From assembly GCF_000003815.2 (NCBI RefSeq), contig NC_049993.1, forward strand, positions 11,057,026 to 11,121,025: DNA of 64,000 bases. Reading direction: 5' to 3'. The notes below the pieces were generated by a model that was given only the letters and a program-made list of their open reading frames with translations, had not been told where the DNA came from and did not search any database. Made by a program: the position numbers and the translations under genes. Below, in pieces: positions 15,500 to 61,420 of this stretch (its first letter is position 1; every line of letters begins with the position of its first letter). Source of the DNA: Branchiostoma floridae (taxonomy: Eukaryota; Chordata; Leptocardii; Amphioxiformes; Branchiostomatidae).

Positions 15500-15676
15500 T
15501 CAAGGGTCTTGATCCTGACAGTCAGTCCAGTCAGTTGAAGATGACACCTGCGGTGGTTGTGCGGGGGAGTGGTGGTAAAAGTCGGGGCCCCAGGTGACGT
15601 TACCATAGCGACTTCGTAGTTCTGTCTGAAGTTGCTCTGCATGTTCTTTGTCACGTGTCTCCACCACACACTTTAC
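15500..15676 (-). CDS. Alternative last exon D of the dehydratase (ACT domain C-terminal half)
   Basis: The acceptor is a long T-rich tract ending in caacag. The exon opens in phase 0 and encodes 58 residues to TGA: VKCVVETRDKEHAEQL, then a helix, then NVTWGPD as the last strand, and a 28-residue His/Pro/Ser/Asp tail found in no other copy. It is homologous to exons A-C, sharing K..VETR, the HA.(E/Q)L helix, RY/KY and WG. Any transcript using it must skip A, B and C because each of those ends in a stop. It is the most distal copy, about 5.5 kb from the shared donor at 21,191. Confidence 0.88.
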   Translation of the reverse strand, partial: VKCVVETRDKEHAEQLQTELRSRYGNVTWGPDFYHHSPAQPPQVSSSTDWTDCQDQDP

Positions 15677-16078
15677 CTGTTGAAAAAAAAGCTGTTTGTT
15701 AGAGAAGTACAAAAAATTGGTGAAGCGGAAGAGGGTTCGTAGGGCATGTGGCTTATAATTTGACATCTTAAAGTTAGTCACATCAAATTGTTCTCGCTTC
15801 ACTGGCTATACCATGTTTCTACCCTGCCTATGATTACTAGACTTGTAGCATAGGCTCTCATTGTGCATTGCTACCCTCCCAAATACCTAAATGAGTAATT
15901 ATATATTTTTAGCAATCTTGTCTAGATCTTTCCAAGTGTTGATTAGTCTTGACTAGTCAGGATCATTAGCAACTGAAACTAAATAGTCCTTAAATATCTC
16001 CTCACTTATAATACATATAGCAGCTATGTGAGACAATTTGTCTCTCTCCTTTCACCTAGGTTTTTTAACCTATAGAGG

Positions 16079-16440
16079 ATGATGAATGAAGCATGCACTG
16101 ATTGGATGTCTGGACCACCTAACCATAAAAGCTGCAATGATTGGCTGACGACTGAATCACCTAACCCTAGTAATAGCTTCAATGATTGGCTGACTGAATC
16201 ACCTTATCCTAGTAAAAGCTTCAATGATTGGCTGACTGAATCACCTAACCCTAAAAGCTTCAGTGATTGGTTATCTGGATCCCCTAGTGCTGATGAGGGC
16301 TGCAATGATTGGCTGACTGGATCACCTAGCCCTAAAAGCTTCGATGATTTGTTATCTGGATCCCCTAGTGCTGATGAGGGCTGCAATGATTGGCTGACTG
16401 GATCACCTGACACTGATAGAAACCCCTGTTGGTTATCTAT
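16079..16440 (+). repeat. Minisatellite with 39/42-bp alternating units
   Basis: Imperfect repeats of gattggctgactg(a/g)atcacct alternate with gattggttatctggatcccct. The later part shows an 81-bp higher-order unit (39 + 42). Because the periods are multiples of three, the plus strand stays open for 125 codons with repeating NDWLT(E/G)SP. It lies opposite the gene's strand between terminal exons C and D, so a coding role is unlikely. Confidence 0.85.
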
Positions 16441-16460
16441 TCACTGTAACTTGTAAAGGC

Positions 16461-16878
16461 TAATCTCCAAGCAGATCTTACAATGGCATAAAATAGTACC
16501 AAACTGGCCAAGGAGTGTAATCAGCCAAGAGGTGTACATTTGCCATGTAAAATCTGCCCCCAGTCGGCTAGAACAAAGGCTATTAACATCCAATTGTTTC
16601 CCATTCAAACTGTGTTTGCAGAGTAGGTGCTAATTGCCCTCCTTCCTGTTTGGTGCTAACTTTCAACTGGGACATGTGCTGGCCAAAGACTTTGTCTCAG
16701 TGTAAGTTGCTCGTAAAATAATTAGCACATGGCAACAGGGAGGGGCAGCAGCACCATCGTTGAATAGAAATGCTCCTCCCTGTTTCAGTGCAGGCAGATC
16801 CCCGGTAGCCAAACACACTCCTAACCCGGCTTCACTCCTCTGCCAGCTTTTGCTACCATAGGATCTGCTTGGAGATTA
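16461..16878. mobile_element. hAT-like MITE, copy 1 (418 bp)
   Basis: The terminal inverted repeats are TAATCTCCAAGCAGATC and its reverse complement. The element is flanked by a perfect 8-bp direct duplication, gtaaaggc, at 16,453-16,460 and 16,879-16,886. The 8-bp duplication points to a hAT-type transposase. No transposase ORF is present. It lies between alternative exons C and D. Confidence 0.88.
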
Positions 16879-17063
16879 GTAAAGGCATCATATGCCTTTC
16901 TGAGAAGTCCATCTATGTTTTCTGAGTGATGACTGGTCTTGCATACTGCTGAATTTCCTAAGGGATAATGAGATTCAAAATCTGCCTACTTTACTTCTGT
17001 CTGCATGCAGCACACAACCTGTGAAGGAGAATACCCATACCCAATATTCTGCAATACTGCTGC

Positions 17064-17177
17064 TTAACGAAAGGTGGCGCTGTGGGGTCCCCAGTCCACA
17101 CGCTGGTATCTATTCATCAGTGTTGTCCTCAGTTCCTCGGCGTGATCAAAGTCTCGTGTCTCCACAATGCACTTGAC
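17064..17177 (-). CDS. Alternative last exon C of the dehydratase
   Basis: The acceptor reads gctgtctag|GTCAAG, phase 0. The exon encodes 37 residues to TAA: VKCIVETRDFDHAEEL, then helix residues ending RY, then QRVDWGPHSATFR. It has the same length as exon A and aligns with it without gaps. It supplies the second half of strand 3, helix 2 and strand 4 of the ACT-like fold. No canonical AATAAA was noticed close downstream, so its polyadenylation site is unplaced. Confidence 0.88.
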   Translation of the reverse strand, partial: VKCIVETRDFDHAEELRTTLMNRYQRVDWGPHSATFR

Positions 17178-17828
17178 CTAGACAGCGGGTGTAATCATTG
17201 TTTATAGCAAAGTTAGTCCATAGCAGCAGTTAACCATACTTTTTGGGACCTGATGGAAGAGAAGTTGGATCTAGCAGATGCTGAATTCCTTCTAAAACTT
17301 ACAAACAGTTCTGTTAAACCATGCAGTAGTTTACCATTACAGTCAAACCTGTCTACAGTTTTGTACTCAAGGGATAACAGTAGACAGATGTCCACTATAG
17401 ACAGGAGTTAACTACACTGTATAGACCACAACAATGTTGCCACAATGGCCATGTAGTCCCAAAATACAGTAGTGGAGGTTTATATCATTGATCATCCCTT
17501 TGATGTATATACATGTACACTGCAATGAATCAATACACAAGGAACATTCAATTCTTATCACATAGCTCATGGTAAGAAGCAAAATTAAATATGTTTTGAA
17601 TCCCCTAAGCTTTCTCTTATGATACATGATGTAACACAGAGGTTCAAAGGTCATAATACATGTAATCTGTAAATATTAAACATTGTAAGAGGAGGTCAAG
17701 TGCTATTTTTGAAGCAGGTGGTTATAAGAAGTTTTGAAGTGAAAAACAAGAAAAGACCAGTAAAGACAGCGCATGTTTGGAAAACCCAAGACATCAAGAT
17801 CAGAACCTTTGGAATCTTGGTCAAAAGC

Positions 17829-17834
17829 TTTATT
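17829..17834 (-). promoter_or_regulatory. Possible poly(A) signal for terminal exon B
   Basis: AATAAA on the minus strand, about 1.06 kb downstream of the exon B stop and upstream of exon C. Confidence 0.35.
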
Positions 17835-18184
17835 GCTGATTTTGTAGATGCCAGCACACTATACAGATAGCACCAAGCAATGGTGTTGTACAAAGCATAT
17901 ATCTTCTGAAGTTTGCACTTTTAGTACATTTCTTTCTGCTTCTATAAAACTTTTTTCCTCACTAGAATTACGATATTTGCCATAGTTGGTTTCATTGTTG
18001 TGCAATAGTTCATTTTCTATATTGACATCATCTTATATACTCTTACCATTGATAGGACCTCCTAGATACACAAGCTTTGGAATGTTGTGCACTCTGTTGA
18101 TAATAAATATCATCTGCCACATGTCAAGAGAACTCCAAGACAAGATCTACCTGGCTGAAAAAGAGACAGAGTGTCTCTCAAAAG

Positions 18185-18319
18185 TAATCTCCAACCAAAT
18201 CCACGGTGCGTAATGTATAGTATCAAACTTCCCGTACCTGTTTGACTCTATTAGCCGGCTACACTCCTTGGCCAACTTTGATACTATCTTATGGCACCGT
18301 AGGATCTGCTTGGAGATTA
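18185..18319. mobile_element. hAT-like MITE, copy 2 (135 bp, internally deleted)
   Basis: It ends in TAATCTCCAA and TTGGAGATTA like copy 1 and is flanked by tctcaaaag on both sides (18,176-18,184 and 18,320-18,328). Internal sequence (ctccttggccaactttg) resembles copy 1. It is located between alternative exons B and C. Confidence 0.85.
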
Positions 18320-18893
18320 TCTCAAAAGCTCCCCAAGTAGCAAGCTTTGTTGTGTAAAATTGTTTATATTTTGCCAATAGCACTCTGTTGACTTCCAGTT
18401 CTATCATTAAGATATATTCATTGCTTCCACATCTTCTTCCATAGTGGTAGCATTAAGAGTGGGAAATTCATTGTCTACACCACGAGGTATATTTACATTA
18501 GAGTACGTGGAGTTATTTTACTTTTTTGAAAGTGTCTAATTGTATTGGATGAGACATAGGGAGTAGACCACTCCTAAAGCCAAAAGACATCTCCTGCACC
18601 AGTCAACTATGGCAAGGTCATATTCATTGTATACCTGTCAAATGATCACAAATTTTGGCCATTCTTGAACTAGTCGTGCATGTATCAAACAAACTTAAGC
18701 TGTCTTTTTCCGGAAATGCAGGCAGTTGATTTGGTCACATCTTCTTTTAAAATCCTTGGGCAAATGTACATGACCATGCCTCTACCAAGGAATGACTGGA
18801 TGTGAAAGATGTTGGCTCGCATGAGGGATTTCTAGTCCACCCCATATGTCTATAGAACTATATAGGATTGCTAAACTCAGCAGTTCCCAAAGC

Positions 18894-19112
18894 TTAGGAT
18901 TTTTTCATGAGTTTTTTGTCCAATGTTCCTCTGAAAAAGACATCCCCTGAAGCCTGCAGGTCCTGTAACAGAGGGCCTGGAGACGACACGTGCTGTATGA
19001 GCATCTCAGCCATCGTGTTCTGGCCCCAGATGACACGGCTGTATTTCTGCTCCAGGGCCTGTTTCAGTTCCATGGCATGGTCCCAGTCACGCGTCTCCAC
19101 CACAACCTTGGC
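18894..19112 (-). CDS. Alternative last exon B of the dehydratase
   Basis: The acceptor reads caccttgcctcag|GCCAAG, phase 0. The exon encodes 72 residues to TAA. It starts AKVVVETRDWDHAMEL, has the helix ending QKY and the last strand SRVIWGQ, then adds about 40 residues (TMAEMLIQHVSSPG onward to LDKKLMKKS) with no counterpart in the other copies. It differs from A, C and D at the Cys after the first Lys (Val here), so it is the most diverged cassette. Confidence 0.87.
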   Translation of the reverse strand, partial: AKVVVETRDWDHAMELKQALEQKYSRVIWGQNTMAEMLIQHVSSPGPLLQDLQASGDVFFRGTLDKKLMKKS

Positions 19113-19759
19113 CTGAGGCAAGGTGCATGATGGGGAGGGCCAGGTGCATGGTGGGAAGGAAGGGTGACGGAATGGACCAACCATGACAGACAAACCAATG
19201 ACGGAAGGGCCGTTTGCATGATGGGAAAGGTATGATACCTCAAGCCAATTGCAAGAGCAAGCATATGATGAAAGAACATAAACCATTTGTAAAATGTGTG
19301 ATTGAAGTAATTTAAAAGCAGAAAGTAAAATGGGTTGCACATACATGAAGAATATGGTTGAAAAGGGTTTAAAGGGATGGAAAAAAAGAACCACCTGTTA
19401 GTAAGTATGGCAGTATTGAATGAAAGAAATAATGATAGACATGCAAACATATATGGCTATCTTTTCTTTACAGAATTACTCTGTGATTGTATCCATATAC
19501 GAAAGCTGTCCAAGTTTCAGTTTACGTCAGCAGGGAGAGAGACAATGCTTGAGAACTGCATCGAAATACATGACTGTTTTATCATACTACTAGGCTGTAG
19601 GCCTCGGCGTGTTTCTACTGTATACTGGCTTTCTGTGGGCTGATACTGATATCATTTGATGATTGGCAAAAGCGGGTGCTAGGTGGGTGCTGAAGCTAAT
19701 CCGTGAGTTCCAATCAGCGAGTTCCAAGAACTGCTCTGGTGGGGAAGAAAAATTTACTG

Positions 19760-19900
19760 TTGGGTCCATGGAGCTGGGGCATGGGTTGTATCGTACTATA
19801 TGTATTGCAAAAGTTAGGTGTGACAGGTCCTTCGGTGTAATATAAGCTGCTGTGTTACGCCGAAGGACAGTTATACCTGCTACATAGATACAGATACTCA
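19760..19900. repeat. Dispersed repeat fragment (gaaggacag / agatacagata family)
   Basis: gtgacaggtccttcggtgtaa, then ccgaaggacag and catagatacagatac. Related, diverged stretches occur at about 23,960-24,060 and 27,190-27,250 (gtcacaggtcattcaggt, atacagatacagata). The family is not identified. Confidence 0.45.
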
Positions 19901-19990
19901 TTCAATTGTCTTACATGTAGTTGATCTGAAGTTCAAGCATACAGTCAGAGACAAAGGAAGTCAAGAAAAACAAGGAACACAATTATTAGT

Positions 19991-19996
19991 TTTAAT
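19991..19996 (-). promoter_or_regulatory. Possible poly(A) signal (ATTAAA) for terminal exon A
   Basis: ATTAAA on the minus strand, about 630 bp after the exon A stop. It is a variant hexamer, so support is weak. Confidence 0.3.
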
Positions 19997-20499
19997 TCTC
20001 TAGGTACAGGAGTGAGGGAACTTTAACTTTAAGTTTAAGTGAAGGTGGCAGGATTTGTGTCCATTTTGCCTATCAAACAAAGACTGTAGCCAAAAATATG
20101 ACTATGGCAAAAATATTGATGATTCGTAATAGATCAGATAAATGATTCTCCCAACTTTTTGCAGCCACAGTTCAGCACCTCCCCTTCAACAAAAAACTAT
20201 GATCTTAAATGCACCTTAGGATGAAATAAAACAGCAAAATAACTTGTACCATACTTGTAGCTACAGTTGGGCCTTGGGATAAGTACCTGATTTCTCAACA
20301 ACTGTTATAACAAAAATGTCTATATTAACCCTACAATTATCAATCCCACCAAAAACATGGGCTCACTAAAACAATCCTATTCATAACTGAAGTTGTAACT
20401 TATGCAAACCACAAACACCCGCAGTAATTTCAACCTTATTCAGTTAAGGAATTATGTTCTTTTTGGTCTCTACTGTCACTTTGTATGTCTCTGTAATGT

Positions 20500-20580
20500 T
20501 TAAATATGGATGTGTAGACCACAGAATGAATAGCCTCTTATGAGGCGAATTGTGGATATAAATAAACTCAAACTCAAATC
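20500..20580 (+). mobile_element. Probable retroelement 3' tail
   Basis: The sequence ends in aataaactcaaactcaaat after a short hairpin-capable stretch. An aataaa followed by a short (aaactc)n-type tail is typical of non-LTR or SINE 3' ends. No coding part remains. Confidence 0.35.
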
Positions 20581-20622
20581 TTATTCAGTATAGTATATCA
20601 TACACATCTTTGTCTATTTCCC

Positions 20623-20736
20623 CTATGGCCCCATGAGGCTATGTGGGCCCCAGTACACATGCTCGTATTTCTCTTCCAGAGCTCTGCGCAGCTCGTCTGC
20701 GTGTTCGTGACCTCGTGTCTCCACGATACACTTGGT
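20623..20736 (-). CDS. Alternative last exon A of the dehydratase
   Basis: The acceptor reads gcccgtccag|ACCAAG, phase 0, 455 bp below the shared donor. The exon encodes 37 residues to TAG: TKCIVETRGHEHADEL, helix residues RRALEEKY, last strand EHVYWGPHS, then LMGP. It is the proximal copy and the default partner of the shared exons. It completes the ACT-like domain with the second half of strand 3, helix 2 and strand 4. Confidence 0.9.
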   Translation of the reverse strand, partial: TKCIVETRGHEHADELRRALEEKYEHVYWGPHSLMGP

Positions 20737-20741
20737 CTGGA

Positions 20742-20809
20742 CGGGCCACAGCAGGGGATGATGGGACAGGTTAGCATGGGCCACAGCAGGGGATGATGGG
20801 AAGGGTTAA
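20742..20809. repeat. Two-copy short tandem repeat beside exon A acceptor
   Basis: gggccacagcaggggatgat occurs twice, 35 bp apart, directly upstream of the exon A acceptor in transcript orientation. Confidence 0.7.
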
Positions 20810-21191: not shown

Positions 21192-21249
21192 CTGTACACT
21201 GAAGATGTCAGATGTGAGCCACGCTCGCTCGTGGAAGATGTCTTTAAGG
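21192..21249 (-). CDS. Dehydratase coding exon 10 (last shared exon)
   Basis: It encodes residues 395-414, SLKDIFHERAWLTSDIFSVQ, which is strand 2 and the first half of strand 3 of the ACT-like domain. The acceptor is tctttacag|C and the donor is CAG|GTGAGA in phase 0, so any of the four terminal exons can join in frame. Confidence 0.92.
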
Positions 21250-21413: not shown

Positions 21414-21581
21414 CTGACTCCTAACTTTGCGATGATCTTGCACAGCTCGGCAATTCCACCCGGTCTGTCGCTAACGGTTACGACAAATCTACAGAGTCTT
21501 CCGTCCGCCGCCAGCCCCCTCTCGATGCAGCGCCCCAGAACTGTGGTGTCAATGTTGCCTCCACACAGTGGAATCACCACC
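21414..21581 (-). CDS. Dehydratase coding exon 9 (PLP site end and ACT start)
   Basis: It encodes residues 340-394. VVIPLCGGNID carries the residue facing the PLP pyridine nitrogen: Cys345, where serine is usual in bacterial threonine dehydratases and serine racemase; mammalian serine dehydratase also has Cys. Then GLAADGRLCRFVVTVSDRPGG begins the ACT-like domain. Donor is CAG|GTAAGC, phase 2. Confidence 0.92.
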
Positions 21582-22127: not shown

Positions 22128-22253
22128 CTTTTCCCCTTGAGTTCGGGCAGCAGTCCTGCCAGCACAGCGGCCAGCCCCGTGGCGCCCGCGCCCTCCACCA
22201 CGGCCTTCTCCATCTCCACCAGCCTCAGGATTGCCAGGGCAATAAACTCCTCC
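22128..22253 (-). CDS. Dehydratase coding exon 8
   Basis: It encodes residues 298-338: EEFIALAILRLVEMEKAVV then EGAGATGLAAVLAG, the helix and glycine-rich loop before the final PLP-contacting strand. The acceptor is cctccacag|GG. The first 18 nt of the exon are part of a 44-bp tandem repeat that runs into the intron. Confidence 0.92.
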
Positions 22254-22404
22254 CTGTGGAGGGAAACAACAGTTACAGTAGGGCGATAAACTCCTCCCTA
22301 CACAGGGAAACAACAGTTACAGTAGGGCAATAAACTCCTCCCTACACAGGGAAACAACAGTTACAGTAGGGCAATAAACTCCTCCCTACACAGGGAAACA
22401 ACAG
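22236..22404. repeat. 44-bp tandem repeat duplicating the exon 8 splice acceptor
   Basis: Four units of gggcaataaactcctcc plus ctacacagggaaacaacag are present. The first unit spans the true intron/exon 8 boundary (exon start 22,253). Three more units (decoy starts at 22,297, 22,341 and 22,385) carry the same boundary as tgtgtag|GGAGGAG. Confidence 0.92.
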
Positions 22405-22766: not shown

Positions 22767-22842
22767 CCCACTGTGACCATTTGGTCAATGTAGTTTCTGG
22801 CTGTGGCAAAAGCGTTAACCCCGACTGTGGGAACAGCAAGAC
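22767..22842 (-). CDS. Dehydratase coding exon 7
   Basis: It encodes LAVPTVGVNAFATARNYID followed by QMVTV, residues 273-296, joining exon 6 (...TLAD-G) to give the family's ADGLAV motif. Acceptor tgtctttcag, donor GGG|GTAAGC, phase 1 in and phase 2 out. Confidence 0.9.
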
Positions 22843-23236: not shown

Positions 23237-23327
23237 CATCAGCCAGTGTAGACTGTGCTCCTACAGTGACGACCTTCCCAGCCTTCATAGACTCTGTGAA
23301 GCCAGCACATCTCTCCGACTCTACTCC
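23237..23327 (-). CDS. Dehydratase coding exon 6
   Basis: It encodes GVESERCAGFTESMKAGKVV then TVGAQSTLAD, residues 242-271. This corresponds to the family's 'GVEP...S...AGK..T....T.ADG' region. Acceptor gcatccatag, donor GATG|GTGAGG, phase 0 in and 1 out. It has no start codon of its own, so only the phases and family motif reveal it. Confidence 0.9.
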
Positions 23328-23678: not shown

Positions 23679-23841
23679 AATAACTTTAACACTGGGGTAT
23701 AGACTCTTGATAGCCAGGGCTGATCCAGCAATCAGACCCCCTCCCCCGATGGGGATGACCACTGCGTCAATGTCGGACACCTGCTCCACGATCTCCAGCC
23801 CCATGGTACCCTGGCCTGCCAGGATGTGGGGGTGATCGTAG
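23679..23841 (-). CDS. Dehydratase coding exon 5 (phosphate loop)
   Basis: It encodes [20 protein letters not shown], residues 188-207, and [13 protein letters not shown]. The glycine loop (219-222) binds the PLP phosphate in this family. Acceptor ctctccag|C, donor ATT|GTAAGT. Confidence 0.94.
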
Positions 23842-24309: not shown

Positions 24310-24365
24310 CCGTTGATGTAAACCATCCCTGAGTCCTTTGCAATCTTCAGAGCGTGAGCCCTGGA
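24310..24365 (-). CDS. Dehydratase coding exon 4
   Basis: A 56-nt exon encoding SRAHALKIAKDSGMVYIN, residues 169-186. Acceptor gatttacag, donor AACGG|GTAAGG, phase 0 in and 2 out. Confidence 0.9.
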
Positions 24366-24630: not shown

Positions 24631-24862
24631 CACTCCGATATCTGCTCCCTTCACGATAACGTTCCCGCCGTACTGTCGACACAGGTTGACCTTCATCAGG
24701 GGTGCGATGATGGGCATCACTACGGTAACGGGGATGCCAAGTTGGTTGCCATGGTAAGACAAGGCTAGGGCGTGGTTTCCTGCGGACGCTGCTACAACAC
24801 CTATCTGTTTCTGTTCCTTTGTAAGAGCCATGAGGGTGTACCGTGCCCCTCTTTCTTTGAAG
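24631..24862 (-). CDS. Dehydratase coding exon 3 (Schiff-base lysine and SAGNHA)
   Basis: With the split serine codon it gives SFKERGA at residues 91-97 (Lys93 expected to bind PLP) and ASAGNHA at 116-122. VTVVMP and GADIG follow. The donor was set at GTG|GTCAGT because that keeps phase 0 with exon 4 and gives GADIGV-SRAHAL. Relatives usually have Glu where Val is read, so the junction is the least certain of this gene. Confidence 0.92.
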
Positions 24863-25382: not shown

Positions 25383-25456
25383 CTTCCTGTCTGCTGTAGG
25401 AACTCCTTTTTGAAGTGCAGGTCGATTCCTGTTAGTGCTGACAGCTGTACTGATTT
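25383..25456 (-). CDS. Dehydratase coding exon 2
   Basis: It encodes KSVQLSALTGIDLHFKKEF and LQQTG, residues 67-90, the 'TP...S..LS...G..L..K.E..Q.TGSFK' region of the family. Acceptor ggttacag, donor GGAAG|GTAGGC, phase 0 in and 2 out. Confidence 0.92.
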
Positions 25457-26268: not shown

Positions 26269-26475
26269 AGTGCACGGCGTTCTCTCAATGCCGTTTCTGA
26301 TTTTGTACGCAGCTGCGCTGACATCCTGGAACTTCACAACGATGGGATTGTCGGGGTCGCACATGGGGTCGAACAAGTCCTCCTCTGCAGGGATGCTGTT
26401 ACTCTTCTCCAGGTGACCGTTCACCATCACACCTTCAGATGGGGAGGTGGCTTCTTCCCCAGGCATCTTTAGATT
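26269..26475 (-). CDS. Dehydratase first shared coding exon
   Basis: The ATG at 26,466 starts a 66-codon segment: an acidic, probably flexible N-terminus, then VVKFQDVSAAAYKIRNGIE and RTPCT, the usual start of the catalytic fold. The acceptor cctgttaacag lies just before AATCTAAAG|ATG, so nine transcribed bases precede the ATG and an upstream exon must exist. With the 29-kb exon an in-frame TAG lies upstream, which fixes this ATG. Donor ACT|GTAAGT, phase 0. Confidence 0.9.
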
Positions 26476-61319: not shown

Positions 61320-61420
61320 NNNNNNNNNNNNNNNNNNNNNNNNNNNNNNNNNNNNNNNNNNNNNNNNNNNNNNNNNNNNNNNNNNNNNNNNNNNNNNNNN
61401 NNNNNNNNNNNNNNNNNNNN
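61320..61420. other. Assembly gap (101 N)
   Basis: 101 undetermined bases; true length unknown. Confidence 1.

What the first reader, a model, noticed from the sequence alone, without database searches (positions are those of the whole stretch)
15500..20736. Four tandem alternative last exons recode half of the ACT-like domain of a PLP amino-acid dehydratase
Exons A (20,623-20,736), B (18,894-19,112), C (17,064-17,177) and D (15,500-15,676) are homologous. All start in phase 0 after good acceptors, carry K..VETR...(D/E)HA..L...L...Y..V.WG, and end in their own stops. The shared exon 10 donor is phase 0, so each can complete the protein. The split falls inside ACT strand 3, so the swapped part is half of strand 3, helix 2 and strand 4, the region likely to contact ligand or dimer partner. 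Variable helix residues and different tails (none on A and C, about 40 residues on B, 28 on D) suggest one catalytic core with four interchangeable regulatory modules. I know of no description of this arrangement for this family.
Basis: partly seen in the sequence, partly recalled or inferred. Interest (0 to 1): 0.92.

Follow-up and report, generated by a model that had tools for sequence, protein, structure and literature searches.

The report
Four swappable enzyme tail exons
A lancelet gene for a threonine-breaking enzyme carries four alternative final exons that each appear able to supply the last half of its regulatory domain, a plausible but RNA-untested way to make four versions of one metabolic enzyme.

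Summary
Ten constant exons (1,242 nt, in frame, introns GT-AG) lead to a phase-0 donor at 21,192. Four homologous exons follow at exactly the stated coordinates, each in phase 0, with an AG acceptor and its own stop. The protein is a one-ACT-domain threonine ammonia-lyase, TIGR01127. Each tail restores the missing half of the ACT domain: isoforms gain 21-24 bits over the tail-less core, five shuffled tails under 4. The genome is lancelet-like. No fifth cassette was found in the window, nor a second such gene in the genome search.

Best reading: tandem last-exon duplication feeding alternative last exons. "Only one tail is functional" fits poorly (0-4 of 400 simulations in 12 settings; nested codon test borderline if that one is D). 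Four sequences from one genome cannot show that every tail is used, and no RNA could be examined.

Duplicated terminal exons are already described in lancelets (G-alpha-s, PMC5896119). New member of a known kind.

The parts
26269..26466 (-). constant exon 1 (coding part, ATG at 26,466)
   Evidence: open, donor ACT|gtaagt; assembled protein matches the PLP dehydratase family
25383..25456 (-). constant exon 2
24631..24862 (-). constant exon 3, begins inside the PLP-lysine motif SFKERG
   Evidence: motif name recalled
24310..24365 (-). constant exon 4
23679..23841 (-). constant exon 5, holds the glycine loop GGGGL
23237..23327 (-). constant exon 6
22767..22842 (-). constant exon 7
22128..22253 (-). 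constant exon 8
21414..21581 (-). constant exon 9: linker, ACT strand 1, loop SDRPGG and helix 1 (expected effector loop)
21192..21249 (-). constant exon 10: ACT strand 2 and first third of strand 3; phase-0 donor CAG|gtgaga
20623..20736 (-). alternative last exon A, TKCIVETRGHEHADELRRALEEKYEHVYWGPHSLMGP*
   Evidence: CTAAC at -35
18894..19112 (-). alternative last exon B, AKVVVETRDWDHAMELKQALEQKYSRVIWGQ plus 41-residue tail
   Evidence: no yTnAy branch-point motif in last 60 nt
17064..17177 (-). alternative last exon C, VKCIVETRDFDHAEELRTTLMNRYQRVDWGPHSATFR*
   Evidence: CTAAC at -36
15500..15676 (-). alternative last exon D, VKCVVETRDKEHAEQLQTELRSRYGNVTWGP plus 27-residue tail
   Evidence: CTAAC at -23

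Best explanation
This is a lancelet threonine ammonia-lyase gene (PLP enzyme with one C-terminal ACT domain) whose last exon was duplicated in tandem into four copies, A to D. The single phase-0 donor of exon 10 can be spliced to any one of the four acceptors. Each choice ends the message in its own stop codon and 3' end, giving four proteins with the same catalytic core, effector loop (ACT strand 1-helix 1) and strand 2, but a different second part of strand 3, helix 2, strand 4 and C-terminal tail. Shown by sequence: exon anatomy, phases, homology, and that every tail completes the ACT domain. Supported statistically: more than one tail has probably been kept by selection. Inferred: alternative last-exon splicing with alternative polyadenylation is really used, and the isoforms differ in stability, oligomer packing, coupling of effector binding to the active site, or in partners of the B and D tails, more than in which ligand is bound.
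For: Exact in-phase anatomy of 10 + 4 exons, introns GT-AG. All four tails keep 13 invariant residues; that these face the core while exposed helix positions vary is my inference from the pattern (with secondary structure). E6, T7 and H12 are the residues conserved in 18, 17 and 15 of 18 prokaryotic homologues. Each tail adds 21-24 bits to the family match; five shuffled tails add 0.6-3.5. All-neutral evolution of the four is rejected (2dlnL 21.0, 1 df; one-ratio omega 0.08 on the best tree, 0.18 and 0.20 on the other two). Nested tests: branch D is constrained on all three trees (2dlnL 9.99-11.88). Joint neutrality of the other three tails is rejected when the spared tail is A, B or C (8.14-17.04) and borderline when it is D (3.31-4.55). 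With an independent prokaryote profile, 'only one tail constrained' reproduces the observed sum of scores in 0-4 of 400 simulations in all 12 tree-by-tail settings. Pairwise NG86 dS 0.90-2.24, and the 60 nt upstream are 18-33% identical, so the copies are old yet still open. CTAAC lies at -35, -36 and -23 of A, C and D (background 0.024 per 30 nt; none in the last 60 nt of the 9 constant introns; meaning of the motif recalled, seen after the fact). Donor-like sites within 700 nt after the stops of A, B and C are no denser than background. Precedent in lancelets: G-alpha-s duplicated final exons.
Against: No transcript, second species or polymorphism could be examined. A, B and C taken singly do not reject neutrality on any tree (nested 2dlnL -0.30 to 1.43; for C omega runs to its upper bound on two trees), and single tails reach their observed score in 3-89 of 400 runs. 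By the prokaryote 30-column profile the tails score only 11.7-15.0 bits against 43.3-68.9 (median 62.0) for the prokaryotic members used to build it. Canonical poly(A) signals are sparse: ATTAAA about 626 nt after A, AATAAA about 1,059 nt after B, none in 1,388 nt after C, AATAAA about 1,415 nt after D. B has no consensus branch point. Donor-like sites of 8.4 (656 nt after B), 7.0 (657 nt after C) and 9.6 (296 nt after D) fall within the range of the gene's real donors, 5.4-11.1, so use as internal exons is not excluded. The B and D tails were not searched for homologues on their own.
Confidence: 0.75

Rival explanations
1. One or two cassettes are the working last exon(s); the rest are fading relics of tandem exon duplication, rarely or never spliced in.
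For: Single-branch tests do not reject neutrality for A, B or C (nested 2dlnL at most 1.43); joint neutrality of A, B and C with D spared is only borderline rejected (3.31-4.55); B lacks a consensus branch point and C lacks a canonical poly(A) signal in 1,388 nt.
Against: All four are open, in phase and keep family-conserved residues despite dS 0.90-2.24; the one-functional-tail version is disfavoured by the prokaryote-profile simulation, 0-4 of 400. Two or three functional tails remain possible.
Confidence: 0.17
2. Some cassettes act mainly in dosage control: splicing to A, B or C yields unstable or inactive protein, or nonsense-mediated decay if a downstream donor is then used.
For: Proximal last exons with their own stops could lower output of the distal form; donor-like sites of 8.4 and 7.0 lie about 656 nt after B and C.
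Against: Poison exons need not encode a good ACT half, yet every tail does; after A, B and C only two donor-like sites reach about 7 or more in three 700-nt stretches, against a background of 0.91 above 7 per 700 nt.
Confidence: 0.05
3. The cassettes are remains of partial or whole gene duplications, or an assembly error, rather than parts of one transcription unit.
For: Tandem arrays can be misassembled; one run of 101 N exists in the window, but at 61,320-61,420.
Against: No second copy of a constant exon in the window (only stray hit E 4.7), no other full set in the genome search, copies only 57-69% identical in DNA, and the DNA search with D gave one place.
Confidence: 0.03

Closest known systems
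Lancelet G-alpha genes preGNAS, preGNAI, preGNAQ (PMC5896119, section 41 read)
   Same: Local exon duplication giving mutually exclusive exons in B. floridae and B. belcheri; in preGNAS the final two exons are duplicated and alter the C-terminus.
   Different: Two copies, not four; signalling GTPase; preGNAS copies 80-81% alike in protein as against 48-65% here.
Vertebrate GNAO exons 7-8 .1/.2 (PMC5896119, passages seen)
   Same: Local duplication of terminal exons, mutually exclusive splicing, swapped functional C-terminus.
   Different: Two sets of two exons; not a metabolic enzyme; no ACT domain.
Pyruvate kinase M exons 9/10, PKM1/PKM2 (recalled, no call)
   Same: A metabolic enzyme whose allosteric region is swapped by duplicated mutually exclusive exons.
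   Different: Internal exon pair, not terminal; two choices; different fold.
TIGR01127 threonine ammonia-lyase, medium form (ilvA_1Cterm)
   Same: The encoded protein (isoform D) scores 385.8 bits, over the 378.75 cut-off.
   Different: The 21 aligned prokaryotic homologues are single open frames with one C-terminus, most ending soon after ACT strand 4.
Bacterial threonine dehydratases with one ACT-like subdomain, BTD1 (PMC3901761 abstract and passages; PMC3851459 passages)
   Same: One C-terminal regulatory unit; in bacteria linked to heat and pH stability and activity, and in B. subtilis the enzyme is inhibited by isoleucine.
   Different: Single gene product; the lancelet domain matches Pfam ACT itself. 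Whether it belongs to their BTD1-A or BTD1-B group was not tested.

Membership tests
TIGR01127 threonine ammonia-lyase (ilvA_1Cterm) | Score over the curated cut-off across the whole model | tested here: met
   Isoform D: 385.8 bits over 378.75, model 1-374 of 380. The other three isoforms were scored only with a profile of 17 prokaryotic homologues: 406.1-407.9 against 409.1 for D.
TIGR01127 threonine ammonia-lyase (ilvA_1Cterm) | PLP fold-type II catalytic domain | tested here: met
   PF00291 276.6 bits over residues 57-346; the best solved relatives are threonine deaminases and serine racemases.
TIGR01127 threonine ammonia-lyase (ilvA_1Cterm) | L-threonine deamination activity | not testable with these tools
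   No biochemistry; the name rests on sequence.
ACT domain (PF01842) | Score over Pfam cut-off (27 bits) | tested here: inconclusive
   Full-length D 23.9 bits; ACT-region pieces of A 27.0, B 25.1, C 25.8. The modelled bacterial homologue shows the strand-helix-strand-strand-helix-strand order.
ACT domain (PF01842) | Binds an amino-acid effector at a dimer interface | not testable with these tools
   Effector of this animal enzyme unknown.
Tandem-duplicated alternative last exons | Homologous exons, each with acceptor, same phase and own stop, after one shared donor | tested here: met
Tandem-duplicated alternative last exons | Each with its own poly(A) site | tested here: inconclusive
   AATAAA or ATTAAA found after A, B and D at a distance, none after C within 1,388 nt.
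Tandem-duplicated alternative last exons | Transcripts using more than one of the exons | not testable with these tools
Tandem-duplicated alternative last exons | Selective constraint on each exon | tested here: inconclusive
   Joint constraint clear (2dlnL 21.0); D constrained singly (9.99-11.88), A, B and C not resolved singly; one-functional-tail model disfavoured.

The most novel reading that the evidence does not exclude
A lancelet metabolic enzyme whose ACT regulatory domain is completed at the RNA level from a menu of four C-terminal halves, each giving the same catalytic core and effector loop a different regulatory output (assembly, effector sensitivity or partner), switched by tissue or diet.
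Probability: 0.35. Interest if true: 0.7.

Novelty: new member of a known kind. Interest (0 to 1): 0.47.

Why it matters
ACT domains are widespread amino-acid sensors of metabolic enzymes, and their evolution is usually described in terms of domain fusion. Here one domain appears to be divided inside a strand, with its second half chosen by splicing from four diverged versions. If confirmed, it gives four natural half-domain swaps on one fixed core and fixed effector loop, a ready-made experiment on how helix 2, strand 4 and the tail shape allostery. It would also be a four-way case of terminal-exon duplication in lancelets, where a two-way case is described.

Tried and rejected
A fifth or degraded cassette: none seen in the window. 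A second copy of constant exons in the window: none. A second gene with such tails elsewhere: the hits outside contig C15 (31 matches in all, E <= 1) lie within query residues 32-357, short of the ACT domain, at 35-62% identity; the search is said to give lower bounds.

Neutral-survival simulation requiring the 13 invariant residues: rejected as evidence because those residues were chosen from the same four tails; replaced by the prokaryote-profile test. The branch comparisons set one omega against a model with some branches fixed at 1; the two have equal parameter numbers, so they are not nested tests, and I replaced them with nested ones. One nested value is -0.30, a small optimiser shortfall. 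Branch lengths reach their upper bound on two of five branches of the AB|CD tree, so the synonymous signal is saturated. The YN00 option failed in all six pairs; NG86 values are quoted. The 'cherry-clock' likelihoods assume equal branch pairs and are not relied on.

Rows dropped: the prokaryote profile used 18 of 21 aligned homologues (L024, L034 and L036 left out: other subfamily, same gene as L023, near-copy of L035). Alignment A2 used 17 of the 18 open frames printed (L029 left out); L023, L024 and L036 had not been put into.

The genome-contig scan with one protein gave one distant relative. The plasmid tblastn found 54 records, none used further. Fold comparison of the bacterial model only confirmed threonine deaminases as nearest. 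Papers: ten searches, of whose listings I saw titles and abstract starts; none points to this gene or to alternative ACT halves. Subscription journals are mostly not held, and lancelet gene annotations could not be consulted. PMC9081730 was looked at in passages and not used.
Full report
What is there. On the minus strand, ten exons from 26,466 to 21,192 join into 1,242 nt without a stop, introns GT-AG. The encoded protein is a PLP fold-type II enzyme (PF00291, 276.6 bits) of the threonine ammonia-lyase family with one C-terminal ACT domain (TIGR01127, 385.8 bits over a cut-off of 378.75). After the phase-0 donor CAG|gtgaga of exon 10 come four homologous exons at 455, 2,079, 4,014 and 5,515 nt of intron (from the coordinates). 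All are in phase 0 and all end in their own stop.

Whose genome. The assembly is unnamed (513,431,437 bases, 431 contigs). A GFP family search at E <= 0.001 gave no match. At E <= 10 it gave two weak matches on contig C17, E 1.49 and 1.51, both under the family cut-off. The frame of one of them (31 residues) matches amphioxus GFPa1 best in the PDB (53.5 bits, 4dkn). That supports the lancelet label. The species was not determined; from recall the size suits B. floridae.

More than chance. The four tails share 13 invariant residues over about 30, score 76.6-86.1 bits with their own profile against 14.4 for the next six-frame hit in the window, and 21-24 bits above the tail-less core with a profile of 17 prokaryotic homologues; five shuffled A tails add 0.6-3.5 bits. 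E6, T7 and H12 are conserved in 18, 17 and 15 of 18 prokaryotic homologues. Against this, in the 30-column prokaryote profile the tails score only 11.7-15.0 bits, the prokaryotic members 43.3-68.9: they are distant members, and Y24 and the closing WG are not the common prokaryotic residues in those columns.

Where the split falls. In the AlphaFold2 model of a bacterial homologue (L026, mean pLDDT 90.5), ACT strands and helices are 325-333, 338-348, 352-359, 369-377, 381-393 and 398-400. The invariant E377 is cassette position 6, so the cassette begins at residue 372: three of nine strand-3 residues are constant and six are swapped, with helix 2 and strand 4. The constant exons hold strand 1, the SDRPGG loop, helix 1 and strand 2. 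In E. coli phosphoglycerate dehydrogenase, serine bonds to His344, Asn346 and the partner's Asn364' at the ACT interface, and Pro348 moves to cover it (PMC6300728, passages). Equating these with the exon 9 loop and exon 10 strand 2 is my inference from the motif. One caution the other way: in M. tuberculosis PGDH the residue whose change lowers serine inhibition most, Arg501, lies in the ACT domain but at another interface (same passages), so residues away from the pocket can matter.

Are all four kept by selection? DNA identity between tails is 57-69%, protein identity 48-65%, NG86 dS 0.90-2.24, dN 0.31-0.49. A codon model with all branches neutral is rejected (2dlnL 21.0, 1 df). Nested tests on the three trees: branch D is constrained (9.99-11.88), while A, B and C singly are not resolved (-0.30 to 1.43). 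Joint neutrality of three tails is rejected if the spared one is A, B or C (8.14-17.04) and borderline if it is D (3.31-4.55, shared omega of A, B and C 0.32-0.40). Simulating neutral branches from sampled ancestors and scoring with the prokaryote profile, the observed sum of three tail scores is reached in 0-4 of 400 runs in all 12 settings, though single tails reach theirs in 3-89 of 400. More than one tail is therefore probably functional; that every one is remains open.

Signals for terminal exons. CTAAC lies at -35, -36 and -23 of A, C and D; it is absent from the last 60 nt of the nine constant introns and of B. The background is 0.024 per 30 nt, and this was noticed after the fact. Donor-like sites within 700 nt after the stops peak at 5.8 (A), 8.4 (B), 7.0 (C) and 9.6 (D, 296 nt after the stop), against 5.4-11.1 for the ten real donors and a background of 0.91 sites above 7 and 0.21 above 9 per 700 nt; the score matrix is recalled. 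So A, B and C look more like ends than poison exons, without proof. Poly(A) signals are unhelpful: neither of the two canonical forms within 1,388 nt after C.

Origin. The 60 nt upstream of the acceptors are 18-33% identical without gaps, and no constant exon is duplicated in the window. The genome search found no place matching the tails beyond the four (said to give lower bounds). This fits old tandem duplication of the last exon alone.

Known kinds. Duplicated, mutually exclusive exons are described in two Branchiostoma species for preGNAI and preGNAQ (single exon) and preGNAS (the final two exons, changing the C-terminus) (PMC5896119, section 41 read). Vertebrate GNAO is alike (passages). 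PKM1/PKM2 is the closest functional parallel among metabolic enzymes (recalled). The listings of my ten searches, seen as titles and abstract starts, point to no such arrangement for an ACT enzyme, but the library lacks most subscription journals and I could not consult lancelet annotations.

How it most likely works. Splicing from 21,192 picks one of four last exons and its 3' end; the products share catalysis and effector loop and differ in the distal half of the ACT domain and tail. In bacteria a single ACT-like unit goes with higher heat and pH stability, and specific activity rises with the number of such units (PMC3901761 abstract); B. subtilis BTD1 is inhibited by isoleucine (PMC3851459 passages). 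Animals do not make isoleucine (recalled), so the lancelet effector is unknown. I put 0.75 on alternative last exons with at least two used, and 0.35 on real regulatory differences among four isoforms. The added nested tests did not change these odds.

Noticed in passing
22,236-22,400 (minus strand): A 44-nt tandem repeat copies the exon 8 acceptor and the first bases of exon 8 three times just upstream of the real one (acceptor-like sites at 22,389, 22,345, 22,301 before 22,257). Read from exon 7, each extra copy runs into an in-frame TAA (my reading of the sequence), so mis-splicing there would truncate the enzyme.
   Followed up: partly
last 60 nt upstream of A, C and D: CTAAC branch-point-like motif at -35, -36 and -23 of three alternative exons, none in the nine constant introns of the gene; background 0.024 per 30 nt.
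   Followed up: partly
16,087-16,419: Minisatellite of 42- and 81-nt spacing between cassettes C and D (family D1).
   Followed up: no
20,734-20,803 and 19,117-19,158: Short imperfect tandem repeats (35 nt and 21 nt) directly upstream of the A and B acceptors overlap their pyrimidine-rich tracts (families D6 and D5).
   Followed up: no
16,847-16,878 and 18,288-18,319: A 32-nt element, 88% identical, between C and D and between B and C, perhaps part of an interspersed repeat (family D7).
   Followed up: no
61,320-61,420: Run of 101 N, probably an assembly gap.
   Followed up: no
L056 1,480-1,572 (contig C17 of the same genome): Frame like the start of a lancelet green fluorescent protein; a second GFP-like stretch lies about 52 kb away (L055).
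   Followed up: partly
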